Positions 1 to 60,255 of a stretch of 64,000 nucleotides of DNA are shown piece after piece. The notes beneath the pieces were generated by a model. That model was not told where the DNA came from. It searched no databases and was given only the letters and a program-made list of their open reading frames with translations. Position numbers and translations under genes: made by a program. How positions within the stretch are numbered: the stretch's first letter is position 1; each line of letters begins with the position of its first letter. Source of the DNA: Clostridia bacterium (lineage in GTDB: Bacteria > Bacillota > Clostridia > Oscillospirales > RGIG8002); the NCBI GenBank assembly GCA_017620395.1, contig JAFZQJ010000022.1, positions 1-64,000 of the forward strand, given 5' to 3'.

Positions 1-1
1 C

Positions 2-1675
2 ACTGCGGAAGCGCACGAGGGCGCCAAGGCGCTCTGCCTTAAAGCTCCCGCCGGCTCCGCGAACTACACCAAGGTCGCCAGACAGAACGGCATAGCTATC
101 GAGGCGAATAAGGACTACGTTTTCACCTTCTGGGCGAAGGCCGCTTCCGACAACACCGGCTCCAAGGGATATCACGCCTACGTTTTCGGCGACAGCAGCA
201 ACAAGCTTGCGGATAATTCTTTCTCTCCCACCGCCGTATGGACTAAGTACACGATCGAGTTCAACAGCGGCGCGTTCACGTCGTGCTTCGTCAATTTCTC
301 GACCGGCAGTTCGCCCGACGGCACCGCTATCGTCATCGATGATTTGTTTATGGAAGAGAAGATTATCGTTGACGACGCTATCATCAAGAACGGCGGCTTT
401 GAGAACGCCGACATCGATCCGTGGGAGATCTTCAACGGCAGCGCGATAACCTCCGACGCTCATACCGGAAGCAAGGCGCTGATCCTTTCCGGCTCCTCTT
501 ACTATGCGAAGGTCGCAAGGCAGATGGGATTGAAGATCGAGCCGAATACCGATTACGTTTACACCTTCTGGGCTAAAGCCGCCGGGAGCAGCACGGGCGC
601 AAAACCTTATCACGCCTACGTTTTCGGCGGAAGCTCCGGACAGGATAACAAGTTTACCGACAAGACGATAGATATCACTAATGATTGGACGCTCTATACC
701 GTCAGATTCAACAGCGGCGACTTTACCGAGTGTTACATTCATTTTTCAGCCGGCAGCTCGCCAGACGGCAGCGCCGTGGTAGTTGATGATTTTGCTATGG
801 AAGTTTCTGTAGATACGACGCTTGTTAAGAACGGCAATTTCGAAGCCGCGACCGTAGACCCCTGGACGCTTTACGAGAACACCGCTGTCACCGCGGACGC
901 TCATTCGGGCGAAAAGGCGCTTTGCCTTCTTGCTACGGGTTCTTATGCGAAAGCCGCGAGGCAGAGCGGTATCACCATAAAGCCGAACACCGATTATATC
1001 CTTTCCTTCTGGGCGAAGGGCGATCAGAACGCTCAGGGCTCGAAGGGCTACCACGCCGGCGTTTATGACGCGGGCGGAACCAAGATCGTGAGCGAGTACA
1101 TAGCGATACCCGCTGAATGGACTTTCCACACAATCTCCTTCAACAGCGGCGACGTTACCTCCTGCTATATCAACTTCTCAGCTTCAAGCTCGCCCGACGG
1201 AGCCGGCATGATAATCGACGACGTCGTGCTTGAAGAGAAGCCCGACGAGGTTCTTATCAGAAACGGCGGATTTGAAGAGAACGGGTATTCTCCGTGGACC
1301 ACCGGCGGCACGACCGCTCTCAGCGACGTTGCTCACGAAGGCGGGCATTCGCTCCGCCTGATGGGAAGCAGCTACTATCAGAGCGTTGCCAAGCAGACCG
1401 GTCTGATCCTCACAAAGAACACCGAGTATATCCTGATCTTCTGGGCGAAGTGGGATTCCGAATCCGGCGGAACGAAGCAGTATCACAGCTACGTTTTCGG
1501 CGACAAGGAGAAGCTTTGCTCCAATTCGATAGCGTTGACCGACGACTGGAGACGCTACGCAATCGCATTCAACAGCGGCGACTATTCCGACTGGTACGTC
1601 AACTTCTCCGCGGGCAGCTCGCCCGACGGCAGCGCAATATACATCGACGACGTTGAAATTATCCACAGAGACGGC
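2..1675 (+). repeat. Four tandem coding repeats of a CBM-like module
   Basis: Roughly 430-nt units repeat inside the first gene. Each begins near an NGGFE or NGNFE motif and ends near SSPDG and IDD. They are diverged at DNA level, so they are old protein-module duplications and not a satellite or CRISPR array. The first copy is cut by the window edge, so the true number is four or more. Half-modules of the same family recur in the gene at 15408-18221. Confidence 0.8.
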
Positions 1676-2875
1676 AGCGGCTACTTCGGCGAATACCCCG
1701 AGCAGCTCGTTGAGGGAGCCGATATCAGAATCGTATCCTTCAACGTGCTCGTCGCGCAGGAAGACTTCAGCTGGAGCCCCTGGGTTATCGGCGAAAGGCC
1801 CGAGAAGTTCAAGGCGTTTATCGACTACTATAAGCCCGACGTCGTAGGTCTGCAGGAATGCTCCGAGAAGTGGCACGACGGCATCAACCGTCTGCTCGGC
1901 GATACCTATGAGTTCCTCAACCCCGATTTCGGCGGTCAGGCGGGTATGAACTGCAGTCCGATCATATATGACAAGACCAGGCTCCGCGTTATCGCGAGCG
2001 AAGTGTATTCCTACACGATAGGCAACAGCCCGCGCTTCCGCCTTATCGACATCGGCGTTTTCGAGCGCATCAGCGACGGCAGAAGATTTATCGTCAGCTC
2101 CACTCATCTCGATCCGGGCTGGGACGACGACGATCACACCGAGCAAAGAAACGTTCAGGCGGGCGAGCTCGTCGTTAAGGCGAGAGAATATATCAATCAG
2201 TGGAACTGCCCCTTCATTTCCACCGGCGATATGAACTGCCCGGCCGGCGATATTCCTTATAATACCATCGTCAACAGCGGAGTATTTGTCGACGCCGACG
2301 ATCATCCGGACCCCGGCGTTGTCGACCACATTTTCCATACCGTAGGCACCGAATGCCTTTTCACCGCGCGCGTGACGGACGCGGACCTCCAGGGAACTTC
2401 CGATCACTATCCGCTCATCGGCGATTTCAAACTGACCGCAATGCCGCAGATCACCGGCATCGAAGTCACCGCTCCCGACAAGGTCGAATACGTTGAGGGC
2501 AGAGAAGAGCTCGACCTGTCCGGGGGAAAGGTAACGGTCACTTACGATAACGGCTCGACTGAAGAAGTCGCTCTCACGGCCGAAATGGTCGAGGGCTTCG
2601 ACAACACCGTCGTAGGACCGCAGACCCTGACGGTAACTTACAACGGATTCACCGACACCTTTGACGTCACGATAATCGCCTACGTGCTCATCGGTGACAT
2701 AGACGGCGATGACGAAGTCACCGTAGCGGACGCTCTTGCGGCGCTGCGTATGGCTGTCGGCCTTGCCGATCAGCCGGAAGGAGACGCGCTCGGCGTTGCC
2801 GACGTTGACGCCGACGGCACCGTGACCGTTTCCGACGCGCTGCGTATTCTCCGCATTGCCGCGAGACTCGACTGA
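2..2875 (+). CDS. Partial secreted CBM-array / EEP-domain / dockerin protein (N-terminus outside window)
   Basis: The frame is open from the window edge, so the N-terminus and signal peptide lie upstream; about 957 residues are visible. Four tandem modules of about 140 residues (the first incomplete), roughly nt 2-361, 368-814, 815-1246 and 1247-1675, share NGxFE, FWAK, FNSGD, SSPDG and IDD signatures and resemble CBM4/9-type jelly-roll carbohydrate-binding modules. An endonuclease/exonuclease/phosphatase domain follows (about nt 1690-2440) with the expected catalytic set: Asn in SFNVL, Glu in GLQEC, His in STHLD, Asp/Asn in GDMN and Asp-His in SDHYP. Then come a bacterial Ig-like domain (nt 2447-2674) and two calcium-loop dockerin repeats (nt 2684-2872). 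The EEP domain is a close paralogue of the one at 12534-13604. The substrate is unknown; DNA, phospholipid and phosphosugar cleavage are all possible for this fold. The domain calls are firm, the biological role is not. Confidence 0.85.
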   Translation, partial: TAEAHEGAKALCLKAPAGSANYTKVARQNGIAIEANKDYVFTFWAKAASDNTGSKGYHAYVFGDSSNKLADNSFSPTAVWTKYTIEFNSGAFTSCFVNFSTGSSPDGTAIVIDDLFMEEKIIVDDAIIKNGGFENADIDPWEIFNGSAITSDAHTGSKALILSGSSYYAKVARQMGLKIEPNTDYVYTFWAKAAGSSTGAKPYHAYVFGGSSGQDNKFTDKTIDITNDWTLYTVRFNSGDFTECYIHFSAGSSPDGSAVVVDDFAMEVSVDTTLVKNGNFEAATVDPWTLYENTAVTADAHSGEKALCLLATGSYAKAARQSGITIKPNTDYILSFWAKGDQNAQGSKGYHAGVYDAGGTKIVSEYIAIPAEWTFHTISFNSGDVTSCYINFSASSSPDGAGMIIDDVVLEEKPDEVLIRNGGFEENGYSPWTTGGTTALSDVAHEGGHSLRLMGSSYYQSVAKQTGLILTKNTEYILIFWAKWDSESGGTKQYHSYVFGDKEKLCSNSIALTDDWRRYAIAFNSGDYSDWYVNFSAGSSPDGSAIYIDDVEIIHRDGSGYFGEYPEQLVEGADIRIVSFNVLVAQEDFSWSPWVIGERPEKFKAFIDYYKPDVVGLQECSEKWHDGINRLLGDTYEFLNPDFGGQAGMNCSPIIYDKTRLRVIASEVYSYTIGNSPRFRLIDIGVFERISDGRRFIVSSTHLDPGWDDDDHTEQRNVQAGELVVKAREYINQWNCPFISTGDMNCPAGDIPYNTIVNSGVFVDADDHPDPGVVDHIFHTVGTECLFTARVTDADLQGTSDHYPLIGDFKLTAMPQITGIEVTAPDKVEYVEGREELDLSGGKVTVTYDNGSTEEVALTAEMVEGFDNTVVGPQTLTVTYNGFTDTFDVTIIAYVLIGDIDGDDEVTVADALAALRMAVGLADQPEGDALGVADVDADGTVTVSDALRILRIAARLD

Positions 2876-2952: not shown

Positions 2953-5900
2953 ATGAGAAAAAAGATTATCGCGTTAATCCTTACGCTCGCTGTTGCGTCT
3001 TCGCTGATTTCGATAGCGGGCCTCATTCCCGCGTCCGCAGCGGATACGTCCGCGCTTGACGCGGAGATTACCTCTGCGAAGGTTCTCTTGAATAAAGGCT
3101 ACGGCGAGCAGTCGCGTAAGTACCTTGCGGACCGTGTTCAGAGAGCCGAGGCCGTACTCTTTGACGAGACGGCTCCGCAGGATGAAATTGACGCCGCGCT
3201 TGAAATCCTCATCGCCGCGGAGGACTCTCTCTCGCAGATGTACGGTTTCAGCCTTATAGATATGAACGGCGTATCCGGCTGGAATGAAGCCGCTCTCGCG
3301 CAGATGAACGAGTTTTCTTCTTCCCGTTCCGTCGACGCCGTAAATAAGCCGGATGGCGTTGATTTCTCCGTCAGCGTAAGCGGAGACGGCTCCGCGTATA
3401 TTTCCAACTCGAACGCGGCGGGCGACGGCATTATAGGCGCTTCGCCGTTCGGAACAGACCTCGTGCGCGCCGACGGCTTCAAGCTTTGGATCTCCGTGGT
3501 AGCGCCGGCCGAGTTTGAAATAACCGTCGGTTCATCCGATATGAGCCGCGCGTATTCCGCGAGTTTTTGGGCGGACGGGGACGGTTACGTCATGATACCG
3601 TTCGACGCGTTCTCCACGGTCGACGGCGCCGCGGTCAAAGAGGAAACCGATTTAGGATATCTCCGCATCGGAACCGGCGCTGCGGCTTCTTTCAAGTTCG
3701 CCGATCTCAACGCTTATGACGAGATACTCGAGGGCAGCACGAAGACCGCTTATTCCGAGACGAAGATAACCTCGCGCAATCAGTTGGAGAACAACGCTTA
3801 TTACAAGATCATCGAATCCACCTCCGGCAAAGCCGTTACGCTCGGACCGGAGATCAGCGAAACGGCAACTCAATGGGAACTTTGCATCGGCGTGGACGAT
3901 GACAATCTTGATCTTTATCTTGACGAAAACAGGGAAGGCGATCGTAAGCAAATGTGGCAATTCTCGCTTTCTCCTTCCGGCAATAACACGTTCCGTATTA
4001 TCAACAAATCTTGCACGCATGCGCTCGAAATTTCGTCTTCCGGCGGAAGCCTCGCTCATCCCAGACCGGTTCTCAATGAGGCCAGGCAGGAGTGGTCGGT
4101 CAGCATCACCGGCGGCAAGGCGACCATTCAAGTCCGCAACGTCGGCAAGCTCACTACCGCGGGAGACACCGTAAAAGCGACGACAGGCAGCACTTATAAG
4201 AAGTTTGAGCTTTACAAGGTCGTAGAGACCGAATACGTTCAGAGCTGGAGCGACGAATTCGACGGCGACAAGCTCGACAGATCGAAGTGGTCGGTCGACG
4301 ACGGCTTCTGGTTCGGCGGAACGGTTTCAACCATGCACACTGATGACGACGAGCAGCTCGAAGTTTCGGACGGCATGCTGAATATGACCGTCACACCCGA
4401 CAGATACGGCGCTTTTGAAATGCAGGGAACTTATATGAGCACAAGCGGCAGGTTCGCTTTGAGCTACGGCAAGGTCGAGATACGCGCGAAGCTCGCTTAC
4501 GGCAACGGTCAGTTCCCGGCGTTCTGGATGATGCCTACCGATATGATGAATATGGGCGGCGGCGAGATCGACATCATGGAGATTGTCGTTACTGATGACA
4601 TTAGAGATAACGGCATTCAAATCGGCACTATCCACTGGACGAGTGACGACGGATACACCCATTGGTCAAAAGCCCATTATATGAAGATCCACGGCTACGG
4701 AGAAAAGTATCTCAGCGATGAGTTCCATACCTACGGCGTGGAGATGGATCACGATCAGGTCAGATTCTACTTTGACGGAATGCAGTACAATTCGCTTGTG
4801 TTAAACAGCGAGGGTAAGAAGTTCGCGTTCGGAGACATCGCGAGATATATCATTATAAATAATTCCACCAAAGGCGACGGTGCAAGCATCGTTAACGAAG
4901 CGTGGGGTCTCGAGGATAAATACGAAACCAAGATAGACTACGTCAGGTGCTATCTTGAAGCCGGTGAAATGAGCGATAATACCGTCGACTTCACGACTGA
5001 CGACAGCATCAACTATTCATCCGGCATAGAGGCCGTTGCCACCAACGACGCGTGGGATATCAATATGCCGATGGATATCAACTGCTACGGCAACGAAGGC
5101 GCCGCTGCGGATCATTTCGCCAATCTCTACATATTCGATCCGCATACCGGAGAAACGCTCAGATACATCAACCTTGCTTCTGCGATGTCTAAGTACACCA
5201 GATCCTTCCGCGTTCTGTATTCGCCGGATGCCACGAAGCTCGCTGTCGCAAACACGCAGGGATGCATACAGATTTATGATACTTCCAATTACGATAACAC
5301 GCCGGTCAGAATCTATAACGGCGCCGTTATTCAGGAAAACGTTCTGTTTACGCCGGACAGTAAATACCTGATAGTCGGCGGTTACAACGGCGGTTCGCAG
5401 GCATATTACAACCCCCAGACCAACGGCAAGACGGAAAAATGGCGTTTCCGCGTTTTCGACGCTGCCACGGGCGCGAAGCTGCAGGATATAGACGTCGGCA
5501 GCGATCCGCGCTTCATAGCGATAACCGACGACGGTTCTAAGGTGGCGGTAACGACCACGAGCAACGGCACGTTCATTTATAACGTTTCCGACTGGAGTGA
5601 ATACGGCCATATAACCGAAGGCCACGACGGAGCGATCCGCGGCGCCGACTTTTCTTCGGACGGCAGCCTGCTCGTGACTTCCGACGACAAGGGCGTCATA
5701 AACGTCTGGAACGTTTCCGATCTTTCGCTCAACAAGAAGCTCAACAACGTCAACTCCGGCTCGGTAAGACGCGTAGTCTTCTCGCCGGACGATAAGAACG
5801 TCCTCGCGACCGCGACCTATGGCGCCGCGCGTCTGTTCGAGGTCGAGAGCGGAGAGCTTATCTCGCTGCTCGGCGGTTTCGGCAACGTCATCCGCGAAGC

Positions 5901-7719
5901 GACCTATTCTACGGAAGGCAAATATATCGCCGTCGCCTCATACGACGGCGGGGCGAAGCTTTTCGCCGCAGACGGCACATATCTCGAAACGCTGAAGGCG
6001 GGTGAGACTGACGAGAACGGCGAAGGCTTCATCCTTTCCCGAATCAAGTTCTCGCCTTATGAGGACGATTACGTTATGTTCTCCACCCGCACCGATCCTT
6101 ACTCGGTGCAGAAGTGGGACCTCCCGAAGCAGTACGACAAAACGCAGCTTAAGCTCGCCATGAGCGACTGCGCGGACAAAACCACGCCCGAATACGCTTA
6201 CGCGGCGAAGATTTCCGGCTTGAAGTATGCTACTCCGCAGATGATCTACAAGGCGTATACCGGCATTGGCGGAACGACGAAGACCGACGAATTCATCAGC
6301 GTCTCTCCCGACGGATACACGATGCCGCCGAGCGTTACCGTCAATAAAAACGCTTTCGTCTACGTTACCGCAGGGGCGTCTCCGGAATACGCGGATCTCG
6401 CGCTGAAGGTCACAAATACCGACGACGGCACAAGCGAGCTTATTTCCGCGGACGACGCCGGATTCTTTATGGATTATAATGAAAACGACGAAATTGAGGC
6501 GTATTGCAGTTACGATTTCAAGGTCAAGATGGCGGAAGCCGGCTCCTTCGAGTTCGAACTCGTCGACCTCGATTCCAACAAGGCGTTCCCGAAGGCAAGC
6601 GCTGCCGTCAATGAAGAAAGCGCGGCGGAGGGATTCCTCTATTCGATAAAGGACGGAGAAGTCACGATAACGAAGTGTATCTCTGGCAGGCGCAACGTCG
6701 TTGTTCCGAGTGAGATAGAGGGGTACCCTGTCACCAAGATCGGTTCTTATGCCTTCGACGGCTACGGAACCAACGTTATGCATATGGCGGTTACGCTTCC
6801 CGACACGCTGAAGGTTATCGGCAGTTACGCCTTTTATAACTGCTGGTCTCTGCGTGAGATAAAGTTCCCCGCAGGACTTGAAAAGATAGAACAGTACGCT
6901 TTCAGCAGATGCAGACTGCTCAGCGTCGTCGATATCCCCGCCGGCACGACAGTCAGTTCCAACGCTTTTAACAACGCCGGCGTCGGAACTATAAAGCTCA
7001 ACTCCGGATCGGGTATTGCGAGCAGTTCTCTTTCGGGAATGTCCAGAGTACGCGAGATAATTATTGCTGACGGTATCGAGAACGTTAACCTGAGTATTTC
7101 TTCTCAGTATCTGTTAGAGGCGGTTTACGTTCCCGAAAGCGTGACCTCGATAACCGGAGGCATATACAATTTCGTTGACACAAGCTCTTTGCACACAAAG
7201 TATATCGCAAAGATCTACGGCGTCCCGGGAAGTTACGCGCAGACTTACGCCGAGTCGTATCCGACGAAGTTTACCTTCGTACCGATTTGCGCGCCGACGA
7301 TTACCGGAGTAGAGGAAGGCAAGACCTACGATCTCTACGAAGCGCCCGTTTCGGCGACCTGGGAAAACGGGCACATCGGATACCTCAACGGCGAAGCGTG
7401 TTACAGACACGCCGACGTGACCGAGCCCGGCGAGTACACGCTCGAAGTTATAAACGGCTATGACGAGTATAAGACGACCGTGACCTTCACAGTCGTCGAT
7501 ACTACGCCTCCGCCGTACACGATCGGCGACATTGACGACGATGGTGAAGTCACCGTTACCGACGCGCTCGCCGCGCTGCGCATCGCGCTCGGGATTGCCG
7601 AGCCGGAGGGCTATCAAGCGGAAGCCGCCGACGCTGACAAAGACGGCGAAGTGACAGTTTCCGACGTGCTCCGCATCCTTCGCGTCGCCGCGAAGATTGA
7701 CGATCCCTTTGAACAATAA
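2953..7719 (+). CDS. Giant secreted GH16 / beta-propeller / BspA-LRR / dockerin protein (paralogue 1)
   Basis: A protein of 1588 residues. The ATG at 2953 is chosen because GGAGG lies at 2941-2945 and a signal peptide (MRKKIIALILTLAV, ending near ASA) follows; an earlier in-frame ATG at 2899 lacks both. Approximate domain order: helical FIVAR-like linker 31-95, beta-sandwich 95-270, ricin-like beta-trefoil with QMW and QEW motifs 275-425, GH16 425-670, WD40-like beta-propeller 687-1070, beta-rich stretch to 1225, BspA-type leucine-rich repeats 1227-1446, Ig-like module 1449-1518, dockerin 1524-1586. The GH16 active site EIDIME is intact (nucleophile E538, D540, acid/base E543), so a beta-1,3/1,4-glucanase or related activity is expected. 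It is followed 58 nt later by a paralogue of the same architecture. An intracellular-type propeller fused to a secreted glycanase is unusual. The exact glycan is unknown. Confidence 0.88.
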   Translation: MRKKIIALILTLAVASSLISIAGLIPASAADTSALDAEITSAKVLLNKGYGEQSRKYLADRVQRAEAVLFDETAPQDEIDAALEILIAAEDSLSQMYGFSLIDMNGVSGWNEAALAQMNEFSSSRSVDAVNKPDGVDFSVSVSGDGSAYISNSNAAGDGIIGASPFGTDLVRADGFKLWISVVAPAEFEITVGSSDMSRAYSASFWADGDGYVMIPFDAFSTVDGAAVKEETDLGYLRIGTGAAASFKFADLNAYDEILEGSTKTAYSETKITSRNQLENNAYYKIIESTSGKAVTLGPEISETATQWELCIGVDDDNLDLYLDENREGDRKQMWQFSLSPSGNNTFRIINKSCTHALEISSSGGSLAHPRPVLNEARQEWSVSITGGKATIQVRNVGKLTTAGDTVKATTGSTYKKFELYKVVETEYVQSWSDEFDGDKLDRSKWSVDDGFWFGGTVSTMHTDDDEQLEVSDGMLNMTVTPDRYGAFEMQGTYMSTSGRFALSYGKVEIRAKLAYGNGQFPAFWMMPTDMMNMGGGEIDIMEIVVTDDIRDNGIQIGTIHWTSDDGYTHWSKAHYMKIHGYGEKYLSDEFHTYGVEMDHDQVRFYFDGMQYNSLVLNSEGKKFAFGDIARYIIINNSTKGDGASIVNEAWGLEDKYETKIDYVRCYLEAGEMSDNTVDFTTDDSINYSSGIEAVATNDAWDINMPMDINCYGNEGAAADHFANLYIFDPHTGETLRYINLASAMSKYTRSFRVLYSPDATKLAVANTQGCIQIYDTSNYDNTPVRIYNGAVIQENVLFTPDSKYLIVGGYNGGSQAYYNPQTNGKTEKWRFRVFDAATGAKLQDIDVGSDPRFIAITDDGSKVAVTTTSNGTFIYNVSDWSEYGHITEGHDGAIRGADFSSDGSLLVTSDDKGVINVWNVSDLSLNKKLNNVNSGSVRRVVFSPDDKNVLATATYGAARLFEVESGELISLLGGFGNVIREATYSTEGKYIAVASYDGGAKLFAADGTYLETLKAGETDENGEGFILSRIKFSPYEDDYVMFSTRTDPYSVQKWDLPKQYDKTQLKLAMSDCADKTTPEYAYAAKISGLKYATPQMIYKAYTGIGGTTKTDEFISVSPDGYTMPPSVTVNKNAFVYVTAGASPEYADLALKVTNTDDGTSELISADDAGFFMDYNENDEIEAYCSYDFKVKMAEAGSFEFELVDLDSNKAFPKASAAVNEESAAEGFLYSIKDGEVTITKCISGRRNVVVPSEIEGYPVTKIGSYAFDGYGTNVMHMAVTLPDTLKVIGSYAFYNCWSLREIKFPAGLEKIEQYAFSRCRLLSVVDIPAGTTVSSNAFNNAGVGTIKLNSGSGIASSSLSGMSRVREIIIADGIENVNLSISSQYLLEAVYVPESVTSITGGIYNFVDTSSLHTKYIAKIYGVPGSYAQTYAESYPTKFTFVPICAPTITGVEEGKTYDLYEAPVSATWENGHIGYLNGEACYRHADVTEPGEYTLEVINGYDEYKTTVTFTVVDTTPPPYTIGDIDDDGEVTVTDALAALRIALGIAEPEGYQAEAADADKDGEVTVSDVLRILRVAAKIDDPFEQ

Positions 7720-7777
7720 TCGTCAATCAACTCAAATTATTACTTCGTCTTTCCCGCAAAAGAAACGGAGGTAAACC

Positions 7778-10700
7778 ATGAAAAGAAGACTCATTGCCAT
7801 ACTGCTTACGCTCGCTTTCGCGCTTTCGATGCTGCCGTTTTCGTCGGCGGTGACCGTCGGCGCTGACGAACCGAAAGCGATCGACGAATATGCTTACGCC
7901 AGATCCCTTTTATATAAAGGTTACAGCGAGCAGTCGAGAAAGTATCTTGCGGATCGCATCGAGAGATACGAGGCGACTCTGGTTATGTATAACGACCTTG
8001 CGACTGGCGAAGAATTCGAAGCCGCGTTTACAGAGCTGAAGCACGCCGAAAATATGCTCGAGCCGATGCATGACGTCGAGCTTATTCCGCTTAACGGCTT
8101 CAATGGCTGGACGTCCGAGGATCTTGCCGCTATGAACGAGTCCTCATCGACTCCCGTTCTCGACGGTGAGCATAAACCGGATGGCGTTGAGTTTTCCGTT
8201 TCCGTAAGAGGTGACGAAAACGGGACCGTCCTTTCCAACGGCGCGTCAAGAAGCGGTGTTGCGGGGCAGTCTCCGTTCGGCCTTGATATGTCGAAGGCGG
8301 ACGGTCTGAAACTGTGGATCGATCCGGAATTCGGGGACGTTTTCAGCATTACGATAGGTCTGCGTTCGGGTGTGGATAATTATATTTACACAGCCTCGGA
8401 TATTGTTGTATGGGGATTCGGATATATCTATATCCCGTTTGAAATCTTTACTACTACCGGCGATTCTCCGCTCGCTAAGGACGGCAGCATGAACTATATC
8501 CGTATAGAGTCGAACGGTACGTCGTTCTTAGTTGCGGATCTGAACGCTTATAACGAGATACTTGAAAGCAGCGCGGCGACCGCTTATTCCGAGACGCAGA
8601 TAACCTCACGCAATCAGATAGTTAATAACGCGTACTATAAAATAATTGAAGCAACCGGCGGCAAGGCGATAACGCTCGGGCCTCCCGTTCCGGAAACGGC
8701 TATTAGATGGGGAGATAACACTCTCGCAATCGAAGACAGCTCGCTCAAGTATTCGCTTGAGGAAAACAGGGAAGGCGATCGCACGCAGATGTGGCAGCTT
8801 TCAATGTCTCCCTCCGGCAACGGTACTTTCAGGATAATCAATAAATCGAGCACCAACGTGATTACGATTTCGGAATCCGGCACAAGTATCGAGGCGAAAG
8901 AACCGAACCTCAATAACACGCGCCAGGAGTGGTCTATCAGCATTACGGGTGGAAAGGCGACTATTCAGGTACGCAATGTCGGAAAGTTAACCGTTTCGGG
9001 TGAAACCGTTAAAGCCACTACCGGTTCGACGTATAAAAAGTTCTATCTGTATAAAGTCGTTGAAGAAGAATACGTTCAAAGCTGGAGCGACGAGTTCGAC
9101 GGCGATTCGCTCGACCGCACCAAGTGGAACGTGAACGACGGTTATTCCGACGGTGCCATTTATCCGGATGACGACGACCTTATCGACGTTTCCGACGGCA
9201 ATATGCATTTCAAGGGCAGATACGGCAGATACGACGCTTATGAAATGTCCGGTACTTATATGAACACCAGCGGCAAATTCGCGTTCGGCTACGGCAAGAT
9301 CGAGATCCGCGCAAAGCTGGCGTACGGCACCGGTCAGTTCCCGGCGTTCTGGCTTATGCCGACAGATATGATGAATATGGGCGCCGGCGAAGTCGACATA
9401 ATGGAAATGGTCGTCGAAGATGATATAGCCAAAAACGGCACGGTCATCGGCACCGTTCACTGGACGGATGACGAGGGCAAAAAGGACTGGGCCAAAGTTA
9501 TATATATGAATATAAACGGCTACGGCGAGAAGTACCTGAGCGACGATTACCACACCTACGGTCTTGAAATGGACCGTGATATGATCAGGTACTACTTCGA
9601 CGGAATGCAGTACAATTCGCTTCTTTACAACAGCGAGGGCAAGAAATTCGCATTCGGCGATACTGCCAGATACATTGTTTTCAATAACACCCCGCGCGCA
9701 AGGACGCCTAAAAATGACGGCTGGCCGAGCAATATAGTCGACGAATCCTGGGGCGCCGAGAAAGAATACGTCATCGACGTCGACTACGTCCGCTGCTTCC
9801 TTGAGGCGGGCGAGTTGACCGACGGCACCGAAGACTACACGACCGAGGAAAGCGTGAACTATTCCACCGGTCTCAACGCGGTCGCCATCAACGATTACTG
9901 GGACATCAACTTCCCGACGGACGTCAAGCCCGACGGCACCGAGATCGCCTCCGCCGACCACATGAAGAAGGTCTATATCATGGATCCGGTCACGAACGTG
10001 ACGAAGCACGTGCTTTCCACCGGCTTTGACAGAGCGCTGCGCGTTTTGTATTCTCCCGACGGCAGCAAGCTGGCGGTCGCGTCCACGCAGGGCAATATAG
10101 CGATTTTCGATACCTCGGATTACACAAAAGCGCCGCGCAGGATATACAACGGCACGGTCATTCAGGAGAGCGTTGTTTTCACCAAAGATAGCAGCGCTTT
10201 GATTGTGGGCGGTTTCAACGGCGGTTCCCAGAAGTATTCAAGCGGCACCGGGAAATGGAAGTTCCGCGTTTTCGACGCGGATACGGGCGCTAAGCTGCAG
10301 GAAATCGACGTTGGCAGCGACCCGCGCTTCATAGCGATTACCGACGATGGTTCAAAGGCTGCGGTTACGACAACGAGCAACGGTACGTTTGTTTACAACG
10401 TTTCCGACTGGACCGAATACGCGCACATTACCGACGGACACGTCAGGGCGATCCGCGGCGCGGATTTCTCCTCGGACGGAAGTCTGCTCGCCACCTCCGA
10501 CGATAACGGAGTCATCTGCCTTTGGGACGTCGGGAGCAAGGCGCTTATAAAGAAACTCAACAACGTAAACACCGGCTCGGTAAGACGCCTCGAGTTTTCG
10601 CCCGACGATAAGAATATTCTCTGCACCTCCACCTACGGCGCTGCACGTTTATTCGACGTCGAAAGCGGCGAACTCGTTTCGCTGCTTGGCGGTTTCGGCA

Positions 10701-12496
10701 ACGTTATCAGAGAAGCGGCGTATTCGCCGAACGGCAAATATATAGTTGTCGCGTCTTACGACGGTGGCGCCAAGGTCTTTGCGTCCGACGGCACGTATCT
10801 CGAAACGCTGAAAGCCGGAAACACCGACGCTAACCTCGAAGGGTATATAGTTTCGCGCATTAAATTCACGCCGGACAGCTCATACGTTTTCTTCGGCGAG
10901 CGCACCTATCCGCATTCGCTGCAGAAGTGGGCGCTTCCGAAGGAGTATGACAAATCTGACTTGCAAGCCGCAGTCGCGCGGCTGAGTCCCTCGTCGCCGT
11001 ATTACAAGATCGCCTCGAAGGTTGCCTACATGAAGTACGCGACGCCTCACATGATAGACAGGATGATGACCGCGACAGGTCCGAGACCTACGGTTATCTA
11101 CGATTTCATCAGAGTTTCGGCGGACGGTCACGAGTTCTCGGATACCGTTACCATAAACCGTAACGGCTACGTTTACCTTGAAACCGTCAACTCGCCTTAT
11201 TATGAGCATCCGTCCGTCAGGGTGAAGAATCTCGACGACGATACGGAAGTGATAATTCCTCTTGATAAAGATAATCTGCTTTCGCTTGAAGCGGACGCTA
11301 ATTATCTAAAACTAACACGCCTTATCAGGGTTCGTATTACCGAAGGCGGAAACTACCGCGTGCAGCTTATTGACGAGGCGCGGGGAAAATCGTTCGCTTC
11401 GGCTGACTTTACCGTCGACGGGACGAAAACAGCGACCGATGAGTTTATGTATTCTATCAATAACGATCAGGTCACGATAACCGACTGTATCTCCGGTTTG
11501 CGCGACGTCGTCATTCCGGACGAAATAGAAGGATACCCCGTGACGGTTATCGGGCAGTACGCTTTTGCCGGCTACGGCAGAACCGTGCACCATATGACCG
11601 TCAGACTGCCTGATACTCTTACGAAGATCGATCAGTACGCCTTCCAGGCGTGCAGCTCGCTGCGCGAAATAGAGTTCCCGTCATCGCTTAAAACGATAGG
11701 GCAGTACGCGTTCAACGACTGCAAACTGCTCGGCGCCGCGGATATTCCGGACGGCACTTCGGTCAATACTTACGCATTCCGCAACACCGGCGTCGGCACC
11801 GTGACGGTAGGGAACGGAACGTCCTTTTCTTCCACCGCGCTTAACGGAAACTACCGCGCGAGAGAGCTTATCGTGAGAGACGGCACGACGAGCGTAAGCG
11901 CCAATCTCGGCACACAATACCTTATGGAATCCGTCTATATCCCCGAGAGCGTCACATCTATAAGCGGAACGCTTTTCGGCGGAAACAGAAAGATTGTCAA
12001 GCTCTACGGCGTTGAGGGTTCGTATGCGCAGACGTTTGCCGAAAACAATCCGACCAAGTTCGAATTCGTACCGCTCGGCGCTCCCGTTATAACCGGCGTC
12101 GAGGACGGAGCGACTTACGACCTTTACACCGATCAGGTGCACGCGTCCTGGAACTGCGGGCATATCGCGTATCTCAACGGCGAGCGCCGCTACGGAGAAG
12201 CCGACTTGACCGAGCCCGGCGAATATGAACTCAAGGTCGTGAACGGATACGACGAGTATTCAACTACCGTTAGGTTTACCGTCGTCGACACTACGCCTCC
12301 TCCTTACACTAGGGGGGATCTTGACGAAGACGGGGAGATAACCGTCGCGGACGCACTCGCCGCGCTGCGTATTTCCGTCGGGCTTGCAGAGCCGCAGGGC
12401 TACCAGCTCCAAGCCGCTGATATCGACGGGGACGGCGTAATTACCGTTTCCGATGCTCTTTGGATACTCCGCAAGGCTGCCGGATTGATTGATTAG
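7778..12496 (+). CDS. Giant secreted GH16 / beta-propeller / BspA-LRR / dockerin protein (paralogue 2)
   Basis: A protein of 1572 residues starting at an ATG with GGAGG at 7767-7771 and a signal peptide (MKRRLIAILLTLAFALS). It is colinear with the preceding gene over its whole length: helical linker, beta-sandwich, ricin-like trefoil, GH16, beta-propeller, LRR_5 repeats, Ig-like module and dockerin. The GH16 motif is EVDIME with E538, D540 and E543, so catalysis should be retained. Most divergence lies in the N-terminal sandwich, the GH16 loops and the region after the propeller, which suggests two enzymes with different substrate subsites. The best-conserved part is the propeller and LRR core, which may therefore be the more constrained function. 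This is a tandem duplication, most likely in one transcript with the gene before it. Confidence 0.88.
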   Translation: MKRRLIAILLTLAFALSMLPFSSAVTVGADEPKAIDEYAYARSLLYKGYSEQSRKYLADRIERYEATLVMYNDLATGEEFEAAFTELKHAENMLEPMHDVELIPLNGFNGWTSEDLAAMNESSSTPVLDGEHKPDGVEFSVSVRGDENGTVLSNGASRSGVAGQSPFGLDMSKADGLKLWIDPEFGDVFSITIGLRSGVDNYIYTASDIVVWGFGYIYIPFEIFTTTGDSPLAKDGSMNYIRIESNGTSFLVADLNAYNEILESSAATAYSETQITSRNQIVNNAYYKIIEATGGKAITLGPPVPETAIRWGDNTLAIEDSSLKYSLEENREGDRTQMWQLSMSPSGNGTFRIINKSSTNVITISESGTSIEAKEPNLNNTRQEWSISITGGKATIQVRNVGKLTVSGETVKATTGSTYKKFYLYKVVEEEYVQSWSDEFDGDSLDRTKWNVNDGYSDGAIYPDDDDLIDVSDGNMHFKGRYGRYDAYEMSGTYMNTSGKFAFGYGKIEIRAKLAYGTGQFPAFWLMPTDMMNMGAGEVDIMEMVVEDDIAKNGTVIGTVHWTDDEGKKDWAKVIYMNINGYGEKYLSDDYHTYGLEMDRDMIRYYFDGMQYNSLLYNSEGKKFAFGDTARYIVFNNTPRARTPKNDGWPSNIVDESWGAEKEYVIDVDYVRCFLEAGELTDGTEDYTTEESVNYSTGLNAVAINDYWDINFPTDVKPDGTEIASADHMKKVYIMDPVTNVTKHVLSTGFDRALRVLYSPDGSKLAVASTQGNIAIFDTSDYTKAPRRIYNGTVIQESVVFTKDSSALIVGGFNGGSQKYSSGTGKWKFRVFDADTGAKLQEIDVGSDPRFIAITDDGSKAAVTTTSNGTFVYNVSDWTEYAHITDGHVRAIRGADFSSDGSLLATSDDNGVICLWDVGSKALIKKLNNVNTGSVRRLEFSPDDKNILCTSTYGAARLFDVESGELVSLLGGFGNVIREAAYSPNGKYIVVASYDGGAKVFASDGTYLETLKAGNTDANLEGYIVSRIKFTPDSSYVFFGERTYPHSLQKWALPKEYDKSDLQAAVARLSPSSPYYKIASKVAYMKYATPHMIDRMMTATGPRPTVIYDFIRVSADGHEFSDTVTINRNGYVYLETVNSPYYEHPSVRVKNLDDDTEVIIPLDKDNLLSLEADANYLKLTRLIRVRITEGGNYRVQLIDEARGKSFASADFTVDGTKTATDEFMYSINNDQVTITDCISGLRDVVIPDEIEGYPVTVIGQYAFAGYGRTVHHMTVRLPDTLTKIDQYAFQACSSLREIEFPSSLKTIGQYAFNDCKLLGAADIPDGTSVNTYAFRNTGVGTVTVGNGTSFSSTALNGNYRARELIVRDGTTSVSANLGTQYLMESVYIPESVTSISGTLFGGNRKIVKLYGVEGSYAQTFAENNPTKFEFVPLGAPVITGVEDGATYDLYTDQVHASWNCGHIAYLNGERRYGEADLTEPGEYELKVVNGYDEYSTTVRFTVVDTTPPPYTRGDLDEDGEITVADALAALRISVGLAEPQGYQLQAADIDGDGVITVSDALWILRKAAGLID

Positions 12497-12533: not shown

Positions 12534-13604
12534 ATGAAAATGAAATTGATTGCAATTCTGCTTTCGGTCGCGCTCTTTATGACCGCGTTCCCTGCGGCCG
12601 GCGCGGTTGCCGAAACAAAAGACGACTACGTCGGGACGTATCCCGAGCAGCTCGTCGAAGGGGCGGATATACGAATCATTTCGTATAACGTGCTCGTCGC
12701 GCAGGAAGACTTCAGTTGGAGCCCGTGGAAAATCGGTACCCGCCCCGAACTATTTGCCGATTTTGTCAATTATTATAAACCGGACGTCGTAGGTCTTCAG
12801 GAGTGCTCGAAGCTGTGGCATATCGGTATTCGCGAATTGCTCGGAGATAAGTATGAATTTGTCTATCCGGACCTCAACGATGAAGGCGATGATGAAAACT
12901 GTTCGCTGCTTTTGTACGACAAGACTAAGTATAATGTTGTAAAAACAGAGTTGTTTAAGTATTCGGTTTCTAACGCCGCTCAAATGCGTCACATGGCGAT
13001 TGCTCTTTTGGAAAATAAAGTCGACGGCAGGAAGTTCGCGGTTAGCTCGACTCATCTGAATTCCGGATGGGAAGGATCCGGCGGAGACAACACTCCGCAG
13101 AGAACCATTCAGGCGGGCGAGCTCATTAAAAAAGCGCAGAGCTGGCTCAGTAAAAACAAGTGCCCGTTTATTTCTACCGGCGATATGAACACTACGATCG
13201 ACGAGGTACCGTATCAGAATATCGCTAACAGCAACGTTCTGTTTGACGCCGATCCTAACCCCATAAGCGGTTGCGTCGACCACATCTTTTGCAGCGTTGA
13301 GGCAACATGCCTTTACACCGCGCAGGTCAGGGATCAGCAAATCAGAGCCGCTTCCGACCACTGGCCGCTGATTGCGGATATCAAGCTTCCCGTCGTGAAG
13401 CCGACTTACACCCTCGGAGACCCGAATAAAGACGGGGAAACCAACGTTGAGGACGCGCTTCTCGCGCTTCGTTATTCCCTTGGAATCAAGAAGCCTACCG
13501 CGAACCAGCGCAAAGCCGCGGACGTTGACCTCGACGGAAGCGTTACCGTTTCCGACGCCCTTATCATTATGCGATATATCGCGAAACTGATAGAAACTTT
13601 TTAG
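12534..13604 (+). CDS. Secreted endonuclease/exonuclease/phosphatase-family protein with dockerin
   Basis: A protein of 356 residues. The ATG at 12534 follows GGAGG at 12522-12526 and opens a signal peptide (MKMKLIAILLSVALF, cleavage near AVAE). The EEP domain (about residues 35-285) shows Asn in SYNVL, Glu in GLQEC, His in STHLN, Asp/Asn in GDMN and Asp-His in SDHWP, so it looks catalytically competent. Two dockerin calcium loops follow (LGDPNKDG and ADVDLDG). The EEP domain is strikingly like that of the first gene in the window (shared YPEQLVEGADIRI opening), but this copy has no CBMs and no Ig domain. It may be a non-targeted version of the same enzyme. The substrate cannot be read from the sequence; DNase, phospholipase C-like and inositol-phosphatase activities all occur in this superfamily. 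Confidence 0.87.
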   Translation: MKMKLIAILLSVALFMTAFPAAGAVAETKDDYVGTYPEQLVEGADIRIISYNVLVAQEDFSWSPWKIGTRPELFADFVNYYKPDVVGLQECSKLWHIGIRELLGDKYEFVYPDLNDEGDDENCSLLLYDKTKYNVVKTELFKYSVSNAAQMRHMAIALLENKVDGRKFAVSSTHLNSGWEGSGGDNTPQRTIQAGELIKKAQSWLSKNKCPFISTGDMNTTIDEVPYQNIANSNVLFDADPNPISGCVDHIFCSVEATCLYTAQVRDQQIRAASDHWPLIADIKLPVVKPTYTLGDPNKDGETNVEDALLALRYSLGIKKPTANQRKAADVDLDGSVTVSDALIIMRYIAKLIETF

Positions 13605-14555: not shown

Positions 14556-15415
14556 TGGCTACTATTCTTGACGGTAAATCACTTGCCGCAAAGCTTAAAG
14601 AAGAAATCAAAGCCGAGGTATCTTTACTGAAGAGCGGGGGAACGGAGCCAAAGCTCGCCGTAATCCTCGTCGGTGACGATCCCGCCTCGCATGTTTACGT
14701 GCGCAATAAAAAGCGCGACTGTGAAGACGTCGGTATACTGTCGGAGAGTATAACGCTCCCGGCGAATACCGAAAAGTGTGAGTTGATCGACATCATTAAG
14801 TCGCTCAATAACAACGCGTCTGTCCACGGAATACTCGTGCAGCTTCCGTTACCGCATGGACTCGACGGAACCGAGATAACGCAGCTTATTGCTCCCGAAA
14901 AGGACGTTGACGCCTTCTCTTATTATAACGTAGGCCGGATAATGACCGGTGACTATTCATTCGTTCCGTGTACGCCTGCGGGTTGTATGGAACTTATAAA
15001 GCTCTCCGGTATATCGGTTGAAGGCAAAAACTGCGTTGTTATCGGCAGGAGCAATATCGTCGGCAAGCCGATGGCGATGCTTCTGATGCAGGCGAACGGA
15101 ACCGTTACCGTTTGTCACTCGCGTACAAAGAATCTTGCTGAAATAACTCGCGGAGCGGATATACTCGTATCGGCGATCGGCAAGGCGGGCTTTGTGACGG
15201 GGGATATGATCAAAGACGGCGCCGTCGTAATAGACGTCGGCATCAACAGAGGCGAAGACGGCAAGCTCTGCGGCGACTGCGATTTCGATTCCTGCGCCGC
15301 AAAAGCGTCGTTCATCACTCCCGTTCCGGGCGGTGTCGGCCCGATGACAAGGGTTATGTTATTGAAAAATACTGTAAATGCAGCTAAAGTCCAAGGAGGA
15401 AAAGAAAATGCTTAA
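14555..15415 (+). CDS. folD: Bifunctional methylenetetrahydrofolate dehydrogenase/cyclohydrolase FolD
   Basis: A 286-residue cytosolic enzyme that interconverts 5,10-methylene-, methenyl- and 10-formyl-tetrahydrofolate. The start is a GTG at 14555 that shares one base with the lgt stop (TAGTG); GGAGG at 14540-14544 supports it. Family marks are YVRNKKRDC with the catalytic Lys, QLPLP, GRSNIVGKP in the Rossmann domain and PGGVGPMT. Length is typical. Its last eight bases contain the start codon of the next gene, an alkaline-phosphatase-like secreted protein, which points to translational coupling between a folate enzyme and an exported protein. Confidence 0.96.
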   Translation: MATILDGKSLAAKLKEEIKAEVSLLKSGGTEPKLAVILVGDDPASHVYVRNKKRDCEDVGILSESITLPANTEKCELIDIIKSLNNNASVHGILVQLPLPHGLDGTEITQLIAPEKDVDAFSYYNVGRIMTGDYSFVPCTPAGCMELIKLSGISVEGKNCVVIGRSNIVGKPMAMLLMQANGTVTVCHSRTKNLAEITRGADILVSAIGKAGFVTGDMIKDGAVVIDVGINRGEDGKLCGDCDFDSCAAKASFITPVPGGVGPMTRVMLLKNTVNAAKVQGGKENA

Positions 15416-18221
15416 AAGATCAGCATCGTTAATCGTCGCGTTTGCGCTCGTGCTGACGCTGTTTGCCGGTATAGGCGTTTACGCGGTAGCGCCGCAGCCC
15501 GACCTGACGGCAAAGAACGTTATTCTGCTCATAGGCAGCGGAATAAGTCCCGCGCATGTTAACGCCGCGAGAATCAAATCCGGAAGGCAGCTCAACCTGT
15601 TGAATCTTACGTATTCCGGAACTCTTGATACCACAAACTCCGATAACGCCATATCGGATCCCGCGGCTGCCGCTACCGCTCTTTCTACGGGTAAGAAAAC
15701 GCTGAATTTTAACCTCGGTATAGATCACGAGGGTAATCCTGCTACGCTTATTACCGAGGCTTTGCAGAGCGCCGGCAAGAAGATAGGTATCATTACGGAT
15801 AAATACCTTAACGACGCCACTCCCGCGGCTTTTGCGGTGCACAATCCGCTGAAATCCGATCTTTACGGAGTTGCCCGTCAGGAGATTGCCAGCGGTTTCG
15901 ACCTTTTCCTCGGCGGCGGCTCGAAATACTTCGATAATTACAGGGCGGAAATGAAGGCCGCGGGCTATGAATACGTGACCTCGCCCGGCAGACTTTCCGA
16001 ACTTACGCCCGATAAAAAGATTATCGGCGCTTTCAGCAACTATTCTTTTGATACCGGTTATCAGGTGCCTTCGCTTTCCGCAATGCTCACGAAGGCGACG
16101 GAGCTGCTCGGCAACCCTGACGGCTTCTTCATTGTTGCCGAGGGCGGACTTATCGATAAGTACTGTTTCGAGAGAAATATGAATAAGATGGTCGAGGAAT
16201 TTGTCAAGTTTGACGAAGCCGTCGGCGTCGCAATGGCTTATGTTGACGAGCACCCCGATACTCTTCTTGTTGTCGCGGGCGACGTTGAAGCCGGTCAGCT
16301 GACGCTCAATGACCGTCCGAATCAGGGGAACACGACTAACTCGTGCTTCAAGAAATACGGCACAAGCTCGCTGAATACCGCGCTCTATACTTACGGCAAA
16401 AACGCTTCTGCGCTTACCGGCGAACACAAGAGCATAGACGTCCCGAAGTTTATATCCGCGTCTATGGGAGTTTATGATTTTGCGCAGGGCGCTGAACAGA
16501 CCTCCGCCGTTAACGATTATACCGTTGATGAACTGAATTCCTTCTCGTCGTGGTCTTTTACCAATATTAAGAAGAATAGTCACGTCAACGGCATAACGCT
16601 CAACACGACTTCTTCCAACAACTCCGCCGTCACCGCGATGGTTTCCAAAGGTTCTCTTGTCGTTATGGCCAACGCGAGAGTCGGATTCGACCTTACGGTT
16701 ACGACGCCGCTCGCGTCTCCCTTTAAGCTGAAGAACGGCGGAAGCACTGATCTTTCCGCTTATGACGGTTTCGTTCTCAGCGCTTCGGGGCTTGAGGATA
16801 ATGCCTTTACTCTCACGGTAGGTAAGGGAAGTACCTTTACCGCGTCGGCGGACTTCAGTGAAGCTATGAAGAACGAGTACGGCGAGATACTCCTTCCTTT
16901 TGACAGTTTTGAGCCTGCAATATCTGCGGAAAACGCCGTCGGTCTTGACACGTTCGGACTCTCTACGGCGGGCTGCTCTGCAAAATCGACTGTCAAGCTC
17001 GACTCCATACACGCTTATAAGACAGACACGGGAATCAGTTACGCAGAGCTGCTGGGCATCTCTTACGGTAAGGATCCGTTTGAATATACCTCCGCAAGCT
17101 TCGCCGCTTTTTCGTCTTCGTTTGAGACTTTCAAATCCGCGGTGACAAGAGAAGAAAGATATGCCGCAAAGCTCGATTTGATTTCGAAGATCGACGCTCT
17201 TGTTCCGATTCCTCTCTCCTCGGAAGAATTCGGACTTGTTGAAGCGAACAAGGATTCGCTCGACGTTTCCTGTGCCGCTGCGTCCGTTTCCGACGGCATG
17301 CTCGATACGTTCTGCGGCAATGCCGACACCAGACTTGCGACCAAATCTGTCGAAATATCCCGCAGCTGGACGCAGTACACCGTTAATTTCAACAGCAGGA
17401 ATTATACAAAGGTATATCTCAGCTTCACGTCCGGTAATTCGCCCGACGGCAGTTCGCTTCTGATAGACGACCTCGCTGTTACGCCCGCTCCCGCCGCAGG
17501 TGAAGTATTGGTAAAGAACGGCGATTTTGAAGACGCGGCCGTTGATCCGTGGATAATCTATAACGACAGCTTTATCACAAACGACGCCCACGGAGGAAGC
17601 CGCGCGTTGCGCCTGATGGCTGCCGCAAAGAACGCAAAGACCGCAAAACAGACCGGAATCACCGTGAGCCCGAACACCGACTATACCTTGACGTTCTGGG
17701 CAAAGGGCGAGAATGACAATACCGGTACAAAGCCTTATATTGGCTATGTTTACGGTGACTCTGCCAATGCGTCGGTCATGTTTGAAAATATCCCGGAAGT
17801 TTCCGGCAATTACGGAGCGATTCGCTTCAGACTCGCTTCGCTCCATCCGGATTTCACCAATGATGATTTTGCGGTAAGAATGACTGTTGCTACTGCCGAC
17901 GGAGAAACCGCGGCGATGATCGAACGCGCACTTATTTCCGAAGGGAATTATTGCTTCGCGCTTCCTGCCGCGCCTTCCGAAATAGTCAGCATAAAGGTCG
18001 AATTCATCAATGCCGCCATCGGCGCGGTAGTCAGAATCGAAGGCGTTGACCTTCTCTCAAACGCTCCCGTTAAATCCGCGAATCCGAGCGTACCCTCGGC
18101 GCTCTCAATACTTCGTGCGGCCGCGGGACTGGCTGTCGTTGATAACGCCGATCTTAACGGCGATGGTAGGGTAGACGTTGCGGATGCGCTTCTCGCTCTC
18201 CGTGCTGAATGCGCCCTCTGA
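15408..18221 (+). CDS. Secreted alkaline-phosphatase-fold protein, predicted catalytically dead, with CBM fragments and partial dockerin
   Basis: A protein of 937 residues. The ATG at 15408 has AAGGAGGA at 15393-15400 and opens a signal peptide (MLKRSASLIVAFALVL); it overlaps folD by 8 nt. Residues 33-370 align by eye to the PhoA family, but the nucleophilic Ser is Pro (D84-P85-A), the bridging metal Asp is Ser (IGSGIS, S44), one zinc His is Phe (F254) and the DH pair is DV (D292-V293). Retained are E245, D250, H340 and the ATPAA segment. Hydrolysis by the PhoA mechanism is therefore unlikely, and a binding role is more plausible. Downstream are a beta-sandwich like the GH16 proteins' N-terminal domain, a helical linker, the C-terminal half of a CBM module, the N-terminal half of another, a further beta domain, and a dockerin with only one good calcium loop (DLNGDGRVDVAD). 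Confidence 0.82.
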   Translation: MLKRSASLIVAFALVLTLFAGIGVYAVAPQPDLTAKNVILLIGSGISPAHVNAARIKSGRQLNLLNLTYSGTLDTTNSDNAISDPAAAATALSTGKKTLNFNLGIDHEGNPATLITEALQSAGKKIGIITDKYLNDATPAAFAVHNPLKSDLYGVARQEIASGFDLFLGGGSKYFDNYRAEMKAAGYEYVTSPGRLSELTPDKKIIGAFSNYSFDTGYQVPSLSAMLTKATELLGNPDGFFIVAEGGLIDKYCFERNMNKMVEEFVKFDEAVGVAMAYVDEHPDTLLVVAGDVEAGQLTLNDRPNQGNTTNSCFKKYGTSSLNTALYTYGKNASALTGEHKSIDVPKFISASMGVYDFAQGAEQTSAVNDYTVDELNSFSSWSFTNIKKNSHVNGITLNTTSSNNSAVTAMVSKGSLVVMANARVGFDLTVTTPLASPFKLKNGGSTDLSAYDGFVLSASGLEDNAFTLTVGKGSTFTASADFSEAMKNEYGEILLPFDSFEPAISAENAVGLDTFGLSTAGCSAKSTVKLDSIHAYKTDTGISYAELLGISYGKDPFEYTSASFAAFSSSFETFKSAVTREERYAAKLDLISKIDALVPIPLSSEEFGLVEANKDSLDVSCAAASVSDGMLDTFCGNADTRLATKSVEISRSWTQYTVNFNSRNYTKVYLSFTSGNSPDGSSLLIDDLAVTPAPAAGEVLVKNGDFEDAAVDPWIIYNDSFITNDAHGGSRALRLMAAAKNAKTAKQTGITVSPNTDYTLTFWAKGENDNTGTKPYIGYVYGDSANASVMFENIPEVSGNYGAIRFRLASLHPDFTNDDFAVRMTVATADGETAAMIERALISEGNYCFALPAAPSEIVSIKVEFINAAIGAVVRIEGVDLLSNAPVKSANPSVPSALSILRAAAGLAVVDNADLNGDGRVDVADALLALRAECAL

Positions 18222-58860: not shown

Positions 58861-58873
58861 GACTTCCTCCCCT

Positions 58874-60214: not shown

Positions 60215-60255
60215 AAATCATTCTCCTTCGCAACGCAGACGGGTAAGCGGGTTTA

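What the first reader, a model, noticed from the sequence alone, without database searches (positions are those of the whole stretch)
2953..12496. Tandem giant proteins fusing GH16, beta-propeller, BspA-type LRR and dockerin
Both paralogues join an intact GH16 glucanase site, a ricin-like trefoil, a WD40-like propeller, leucine-rich repeats of the surface-adhesin type and a dockerin in one secreted chain. The propeller and LRR core is the most conserved part between the copies. This suggests a scaffold or receptor-like glycan-processing machine, not a simple enzyme.
Basis: partly seen in the sequence, partly recalled or inferred. Interest (0 to 1): 0.6.

Follow-up and report, generated by a model that had tools for sequence, protein, structure and literature searches.

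The report
Rumen glucanases fused to WD40 propellers
Two giant secreted proteins of a rumen Clostridia bacterium join a probably active glucan-cutting enzyme to an eight-bladed propeller, adhesion-type repeats and a docking plug; they belong to a 16-member family found so far in one genus only, including one membrane-bound copy that has lost its catalytic residues and sits in a sugar-import operon.

Summary
Two adjacent genes (2953-7719, 7778-12496; 60% identical) each encode helical bundle, unnamed beta-sandwich, ricin-type trefoil, GH16, WD40 propeller, second sandwich, BspA-type LRR, Ig-like domain and type I dockerin. AlphaFold2 gives an eight-bladed propeller (Z 39.5 to ODA16) and a laminarinase-like GH16 (Z 29.8); ExDxxE is invariant in the 25 rows aligned. 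One sub-claim fails: the propeller is the best-conserved part between the copies (71%), but the LRR is not (56%). The genome (Clostridia; relatives are rumen MAGs) has five cohesin hits and about 70 dockerin proteins, so docking is plausible. There are 16 GH16-propeller proteins in 1.93 Mb. They recur in all four species of the genus and in none of about 390 other genomes of the order or about 397 of the phylum. LRR-bearing members form one clade, so the conserved unit is trefoil-GH16-propeller. One paralogue, conserved in all four species, is membrane-anchored, has lost both catalytic glutamates and ends an ABC sugar-permease operon. Best reading: cohesin-docked endo-beta-1,3(4)-glucanases whose propeller is a binding platform; substrate and propeller ligand are unknown. 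Dockerin-GH16 and LRR-dockerin proteins are known; the WD40 fusion and its family appear undescribed.

The parts
2953..7719 (+). Giant protein P0001, 1588 aa: signal peptide, helical bundle, beta-sandwich, trefoil, GH16, eight-bladed WD40 propeller, beta-sandwich, LRR, Ig-like, dockerin
   Evidence: GGAGG upstream
3037..3240 (+). N-terminal three-helix bundle of P0001 (FIVAR-like by appearance only)
   Evidence: AlphaFold2 model, helices 6-18, 25-43, 49-64, pLDDT mostly 80-95
3241..3738 (+). Beta-sandwich module of P0001 without a Pfam family; also found in other dockerin proteins of this genome and in the alkaline phosphatase gene at 15378-18221
   Evidence: no Pfam or PDB sequence match; own HMM search
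3763..4227 (+). Ricin-type beta-trefoil of P0001 (QxW motifs at residues 333-335 and 379-381)
   Evidence: PF14200 30.6 bits, cut-off 25.6; model
4228..4968 (+). GH16 catalytic domain of P0001, laminarinase-like
   Evidence: PF00722 45.8 bits; 3azx E 5.2e-21; Z 29.8 to PtLam
4564..4581 (+). Catalytic ExDxxE (EIDIME, residues 538-543) of P0001
   Evidence: invariant in 25 family rows; aligned to Tm laminarinase; position
5008..6126 (+). Eight-bladed WD40 propeller of P0001
6142..6624 (+). Helices plus beta-sandwich between propeller and LRR; least conserved part between the copies
   Evidence: model; 32% identity between copies
6628..7242 (+). BspA-type LRR of P0001
   Evidence: PF13306 117.8 bits, cut-off 27.7
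7270..7500 (+). Predicted beta-rich (Ig-like) domain of P0001, no Pfam match
   Evidence: model of the region to residue 1480; 69% between copies
7519..7707 (+). Type I dockerin of P0001, two DxDxDG...D loops
   Evidence: PF00404 31.2 bits, cut-off 22.9
7778..12496 (+). Giant protein P0002, 1572 aa, same architecture, 60% identical
8597..9064 (+). Trefoil of P0002
   Evidence: PF14200 34.3 bits; mapped by alignment
9065..9814 (+). GH16 of P0002; catalytic EVDIME at 9389-9406
   Evidence: PF00722 44.8 bits
9854..10939 (+). WD40 propeller of P0002
11438..12031 (+). LRR of P0002
   Evidence: PF13306 70.6 bits
12308..12493 (+). Dockerin of P0002
   Evidence: PF00404 31.3 bits
2..2875 (+). Neighbour, cut by the contig end: CBM4_9 x4, endonuclease/phosphatase fold, Big_3, dockerin
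   Evidence: full-length counterpart at G002:C4:115031-118978
12534..13604 (+). Neighbour: endonuclease/exonuclease/phosphatase-fold enzyme with dockerin, 356 aa

Best explanation
P0001 and P0002 are secreted endo-beta-1,3(4)-glucanase-type enzymes of a cohesin-dockerin system. The trefoil and the N-terminal beta-sandwich hold polysaccharide, the GH16 domain cuts it, and the eight-bladed propeller fused behind it is a rigid binding platform for glycan or a partner protein. The LRR, present in one clade only, adds adhesion, and the dockerin hands the chain to a cohesin, for example the membrane-anchored one on contig C32. Products would be taken up by an ABC sugar importer; the catalytically dead, membrane-anchored paralogue at the end of an ABC permease operon would hold or pass on glycan at the membrane. 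Shown by computation: the domains, the intact catalytic motif, the predicted fold of propeller and GH16, the family, its restriction to the genus in the genomes searched, the dead paralogue and its operon. Inferred: activity, substrate, cohesin binding, ligand of propeller and LRR, link to import.
For: Domains above Pfam cut-offs. GH16 closest to laminarinases in sequence and fold; ExDxxE invariant in 25 rows. Propeller predicted with eight blades. Dockerins about 70, cohesins 5 in the same genome, one protein ending in a transmembrane segment by sequence. Purifying selection on every domain, dN/dS 0.02-0.29 where measurable. 16 of 18 GH16 genes in the genome carry the propeller. Dead membrane paralogue conserved 75-85% in all four species, in an ABC permease operon.
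Against: No binding or activity data. Predicted models only; domain packing is unsure (pTM 0.57 and 0.65). WD40 propellers mostly bind peptides and proteins (general knowledge), so glycan binding by this one is a guess. No cohesin-dockerin pair was modelled. The substrate-binding protein of the importer was not examined. GH16 fold alone does not fix the substrate: endo-O-glycanases acting on mucin also match (Z 27.5).
Confidence: 0.5

Rival explanations
1. Ordinary multimodular dockerin enzymes: GH16 does the work, and propeller, sandwich and LRR are stable spacers or generic carbohydrate-binding parts with no special partner.
For: Dockerin-GH16 and LRR-dockerin proteins are well known in Ruminococcus flavefaciens (PMC2930009; PMC4081043). 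GH16 has the lowest or near-lowest dN/dS in the pairs tested.
Against: The propeller is the best-conserved domain between the copies, is kept in all paralogues seen, and persists in the paralogue that lost catalysis. A mere spacer would be expected to drift like the stretch at 6142-6624.
Confidence: 0.3
2. Adhesins that tether the cell to plant, fungal or microbial surfaces or host proteins through LRR and propeller; GH16 is secondary or only trims the binding site.
For: BspA-type LRR and many LRR-dockerin proteins in the genome; variable C-termini including a PnrA-like domain.
Against: LRR absent from most of the family; catalytic motif strictly kept.
Confidence: 0.12
3. The substrate is not beta-glucan but microbial or host glycoconjugates; the system scavenges glycoproteins and phosphorylated debris, with GH16 acting as an endo-O-glycanase or on another galactan or glucan. 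(This concerns the substrate and can be true together with the platform reading.)
For: No GH9 match. Dockerin partners include tyrosine-phosphatase-fold, alkaline and purple acid phosphatases, GH92, NAGLU, alpha-rhamnosidase, amidase and GDSL esterases. Mucin O-glycanases are among the fold matches.
Against: Best sequence and fold matches are laminarinases.
Confidence: 0.2

Closest known systems
Dockerin-bearing GH16 enzymes of Ruminococcus flavefaciens FD-1 (for example Doc-GH16-GH16-GH16)
   Same: Secreted GH16 joined to a type I dockerin in a rumen Clostridia bacterium (PMC2930009; PMC4081043)
   Different: No propeller, trefoil or LRR in the chains listed there; that system is cellulolytic (GH9, GH48), whereas no GH9 was found here and the GH48 test was uninformative
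LRR-dockerin proteins of R. flavefaciens
   Same: LRR and dockerin on one secreted chain (28 LRR modules in the table)
   Different: Not joined to GH16 and propeller in the published lists read
GH16 laminarinases (PtLam, Thermotoga maritima 3azx, ZgLamC)
   Same: Catalytic fold and GEIDIME motif, 25-29% identity
   Different: No WD40 propeller or dockerin in the structures found
Eight-bladed WD40 propellers (ODA16, TBL1XR1, Rsa4, design Tako8)
   Same: Propeller fold and blade number, Z 35-39.5 over about 330 residues
   Different: Intracellular eukaryotic or designed proteins; here secreted and fused to GH16; 14-15% identity
Limousia mucinolysome
   Same: Non-cellulolytic cohesin-dockerin system in gut Clostridia (PMC12997984)
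   Different: Mucin-active set with several scaffoldins; no GH92 or phosphatase mentioned in that text

Membership tests
GH16 (laminarinase-type) | GH16 domain above curated cut-off | tested here: met
   45.8 and 44.8 bits, cut-off 22
GH16 (laminarinase-type) | Catalytic ExDxxE present | tested here: met
GH16 (laminarinase-type) | Hydrolysis of beta-1,3 or mixed-linkage glucan | not testable with these tools
   needs enzyme assay
WD40 beta-propeller | WD40 match and closed propeller fold | tested here: met
   PF00400 above cut-off; model and fold search
Cohesin-dockerin complex component | Type I dockerin with two calcium loops | tested here: met
   PF00404 above cut-off in both; loops visible in sequence
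Cohesin-dockerin complex component | Cohesins encoded in the same genome | tested here: met
   five matches, four above cut-off
Cohesin-dockerin complex component | Physical binding of this dockerin to a cohesin | not testable with these tools
   no complex prediction available; needs binding assay
Classical cellulosome | Cellulases of GH9 | tested here: not met
   no GH9 match while controls rang
Classical cellulosome | Cellulase of GH48 | tested here: inconclusive
   no match, but no control genome rang either
Classical cellulosome | Scaffoldin with many cohesins | tested here: not met
   at most two cohesins per protein found; divergent cohesins may be missed
   no cohesin among the Pfam matches shown for P0001 or P0002 and none at these places in the genome-wide cohesin search
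BspA-type LRR protein | LRR_5 above cut-off | tested here: met
   117.8 and 70.6 bits

The most novel reading that the evidence does not exclude
Trefoil-GH16-propeller is a dedicated glycan capture and relay unit: docked active copies cut glycan at the cell surface and a conserved catalytically dead membrane copy receives or senses it beside an ABC importer, with the propeller mediating assembly between copies. That would be a new type of Gram-positive surface glycan-uptake machine.
Probability: 0.2. Interest if true: 0.75.

Novelty: new variant of a known kind. Interest (0 to 1): 0.52.

Why it matters
Cohesin-dockerin systems are usually read as plant-fibre degraders built from enzymes and carbohydrate-binding modules. 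Here a small rumen genome without detectable GH9 has built its GH16 repertoire almost wholly around an eight-bladed WD40 propeller, a module best known from eukaryotic protein assembly, and keeps a catalytically dead membrane copy in a sugar-import operon. If the propeller binds a defined ligand, this links polysaccharide cutting, surface docking and import in one testable family, and it supplies an unnamed beta-sandwich as a candidate carbohydrate-binding module.

Tried and rejected
Chance or chimeric assembly: rejected, the architecture recurs in four genomes. It gave only generic WD40 proteins outside the genus; none had a GH16, trefoil or N-terminal match in the same frame. Viral contigs: nothing. 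The one same-order hit, G086, shows by sequence an NTPase-like protein with WD40 repeats; the domain search found no GH16 or trefoil. Papers on WD40 with dockerin or laminarinase: nothing relevant; this covers open-licence papers only. The fold of the N-terminal sandwich on its own was not searched, since GH16 filled the result list, so there is no claim that it is a new fold. The idea that the LRR is part of the essential core: rejected by the family tree. GH48 absence is not claimed.

Full report
What is there. Two adjacent genes on the + strand (2953-7719 and 7778-12496) encode secreted proteins of 1588 and 1572 aa, 60% identical, each behind a GGAGG motif. Pfam finds ricin-type trefoil, GH16, WD40, LRR_5 and dockerin above the curated cut-offs in both.

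Structure. An AlphaFold2 model of P0001 residues 660-1480 (20 sequences, mean pLDDT 78.6, pTM 0.57) has 31-32 strands in the propeller region, that is eight blades. Foldseek and VIA-align match it to eight-bladed WD40 propellers: ODA16 Z 39.5, TBL1XR1 Z 38.5, Tako8 Z 35.9. A model of residues 28-672 (pLDDT 88.8, pTM 0.65) has a helical bundle, a beta-sandwich, a trefoil and a GH16 whose best matches are laminarinases, Z 29.8. The low pTM values mean that domain packing is not established.

Catalysis. EIDIME (538-543) aligns with GEIDIME of Thermotoga laminarinase, and ExDxxE is invariant in 25 aligned family rows. In the four ortholog pairs tested dN/dS is 0.02-0.29 where it could be computed (one domain was saturated), with GH16 at 0.05-0.07.

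Conservation between the two copies. Propeller 71%, trefoil 69%, Ig-like 69%, dockerin 66%, GH16 65%, LRR 56%, the stretch between propeller and LRR 32%.

The family. In the window's genome (1.93 Mb, 98.7% complete) there are 18 GH16 matches. Two are short frames of about 250 aa; the other 16 are trefoil/GH16/propeller proteins: C22 x2 (the window), C16 x2, C27 x3, C14 x2, C28 x4, C29, C31 and C3 (for C29 the WD40 part was seen clearly by Pfam, and only weakly by similarity to P0001). Twelve have dockerin matches and a thirteenth, C28:33582-37103, ends in a dockerin by eye. C-termini differ: LRR plus Ig-like, LRR alone, a PnrA-like domain, a second N-terminal-type sandwich, or only a dockerin. 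In a GH16 tree the LRR-bearing members form one clade (96/94), with long branches present and the root set at the midpoint, so the LRR looks like a later addition.

Distribution. The full architecture occurs in all four species of the genus. A propeller profile search at E 1e-20 found no match in the other genomes of 394 from the order, and only short WD40 stretches without sign of GH16 in 398 from the phylum (the frames of three of these loci were checked for the other domains). Among 80 loci from a collection of 84,980 species genomes only those of this genus carried GH16 or trefoil as well, with the limits given under tried and rejected. Two relatives are named rumen MAGs, goat and water buffalo.

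The dead paralogue. G000:C3:32161-34482 encodes 773 aa: an N-terminal hydrophobic segment, trefoil, GH16 and WD40 propeller, no dockerin. In place of ExDxxE all four species have R-[VA]-D-x-x-D, and identity between species is 75-85%. It is the last gene of a run with four ABC permeases, DUF5696 and a Yip1/NHL protein. No match at E 1e-12 outside the genus among 394 genomes of the order. That trefoil and propeller persist without catalysis is the best evidence that the core does more than support an enzyme.

The docking system. Five cohesin matches lie in four proteins: one ends in a transmembrane segment (C32), one has two cohesins and a dockerin (C8), one joins LRR, dockerin, Big_3 and cohesin (C28), one has cohesin, Big_2 and dockerin (C22). 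About 70 dockerin proteins include five tyrosine-phosphatase-fold proteins with CBM4_9, purple acid and alkaline phosphatases, GH92, NAGLU, alpha-rhamnosidase, amidase and GDSL esterases. No GH9 was found; GH48 could not be judged. Cohesins are common in this order, so the docking system itself is not special.

Interpretation. Most likely these are cohesin-docked endo-beta-1,3(4)-glucanases with a binding platform. The substrate, the ligand of the propeller and the link to import are inferences. In open-licence papers I found dockerin-GH16 and LRR-dockerin proteins but no WD40-GH16 or WD40-dockerin protein.

Mosaic history. P0001 residues 1 to about 400 are 44-70% identical to the G002 ortholog, while the rest is 91-96%; the first 262 residues are 78-82% identical to G001. 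This fits recombination of the N-terminal part.

Noticed in passing
window 2953-4150: The N-terminal part of P0001 (about 260-400 residues) is closer to the G001 ortholog, the rest much closer to G002: likely recombination.
   Followed up: partly
window 3241-3738; also 15378-18221 (residues 385-548): A roughly 165-aa beta-sandwich without a Pfam family recurs in other dockerin proteins of this genome and, weakly (iE 9e-5), in the alkaline phosphatase gene: candidate carbohydrate-binding module.
   Followed up: partly
L049 (G000:C20:28839-44605): Five tandem genes each with CBM4_9, a tyrosine-phosphatase-fold domain and two dockerins.
   Followed up: no
L190:8162-10483 (G000:C3): Membrane-anchored GH16-propeller protein without catalytic glutamates, last in an ABC permease/DUF5696/Yip1 gene run.
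   Followed up: yes
L041:14591-19855 (G000:C27): GH16, propeller and dockerin fused to a PnrA-like (Bmp) solute-binding domain on one chain.
   Followed up: no
G000:C16:19101-26498; counterpart L052:9602-17005: A 2465-aa protein next to two of the giants; its counterpart in G002 has GH94 and glycoamylase-type domains, like cyclic beta-glucan synthases.
   Followed up: no
window 1-2875: First gene is cut at the contig start in its CBM4_9 repeats; the end of contig C16 probably carries its other half, as gene order in G002 suggests.
   Followed up: partly
window 57517-61647, - strand: Three tandem dockerin genes; the two scanned one by one are GDSL esterases with fn3.
   Followed up: no
L043:11864-14641 (G000:C14): A family member without an obvious signal peptide or dockerin, beside one with a lipoprotein-like N-terminus (G000:C14:33835-36849).
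   Followed up: no
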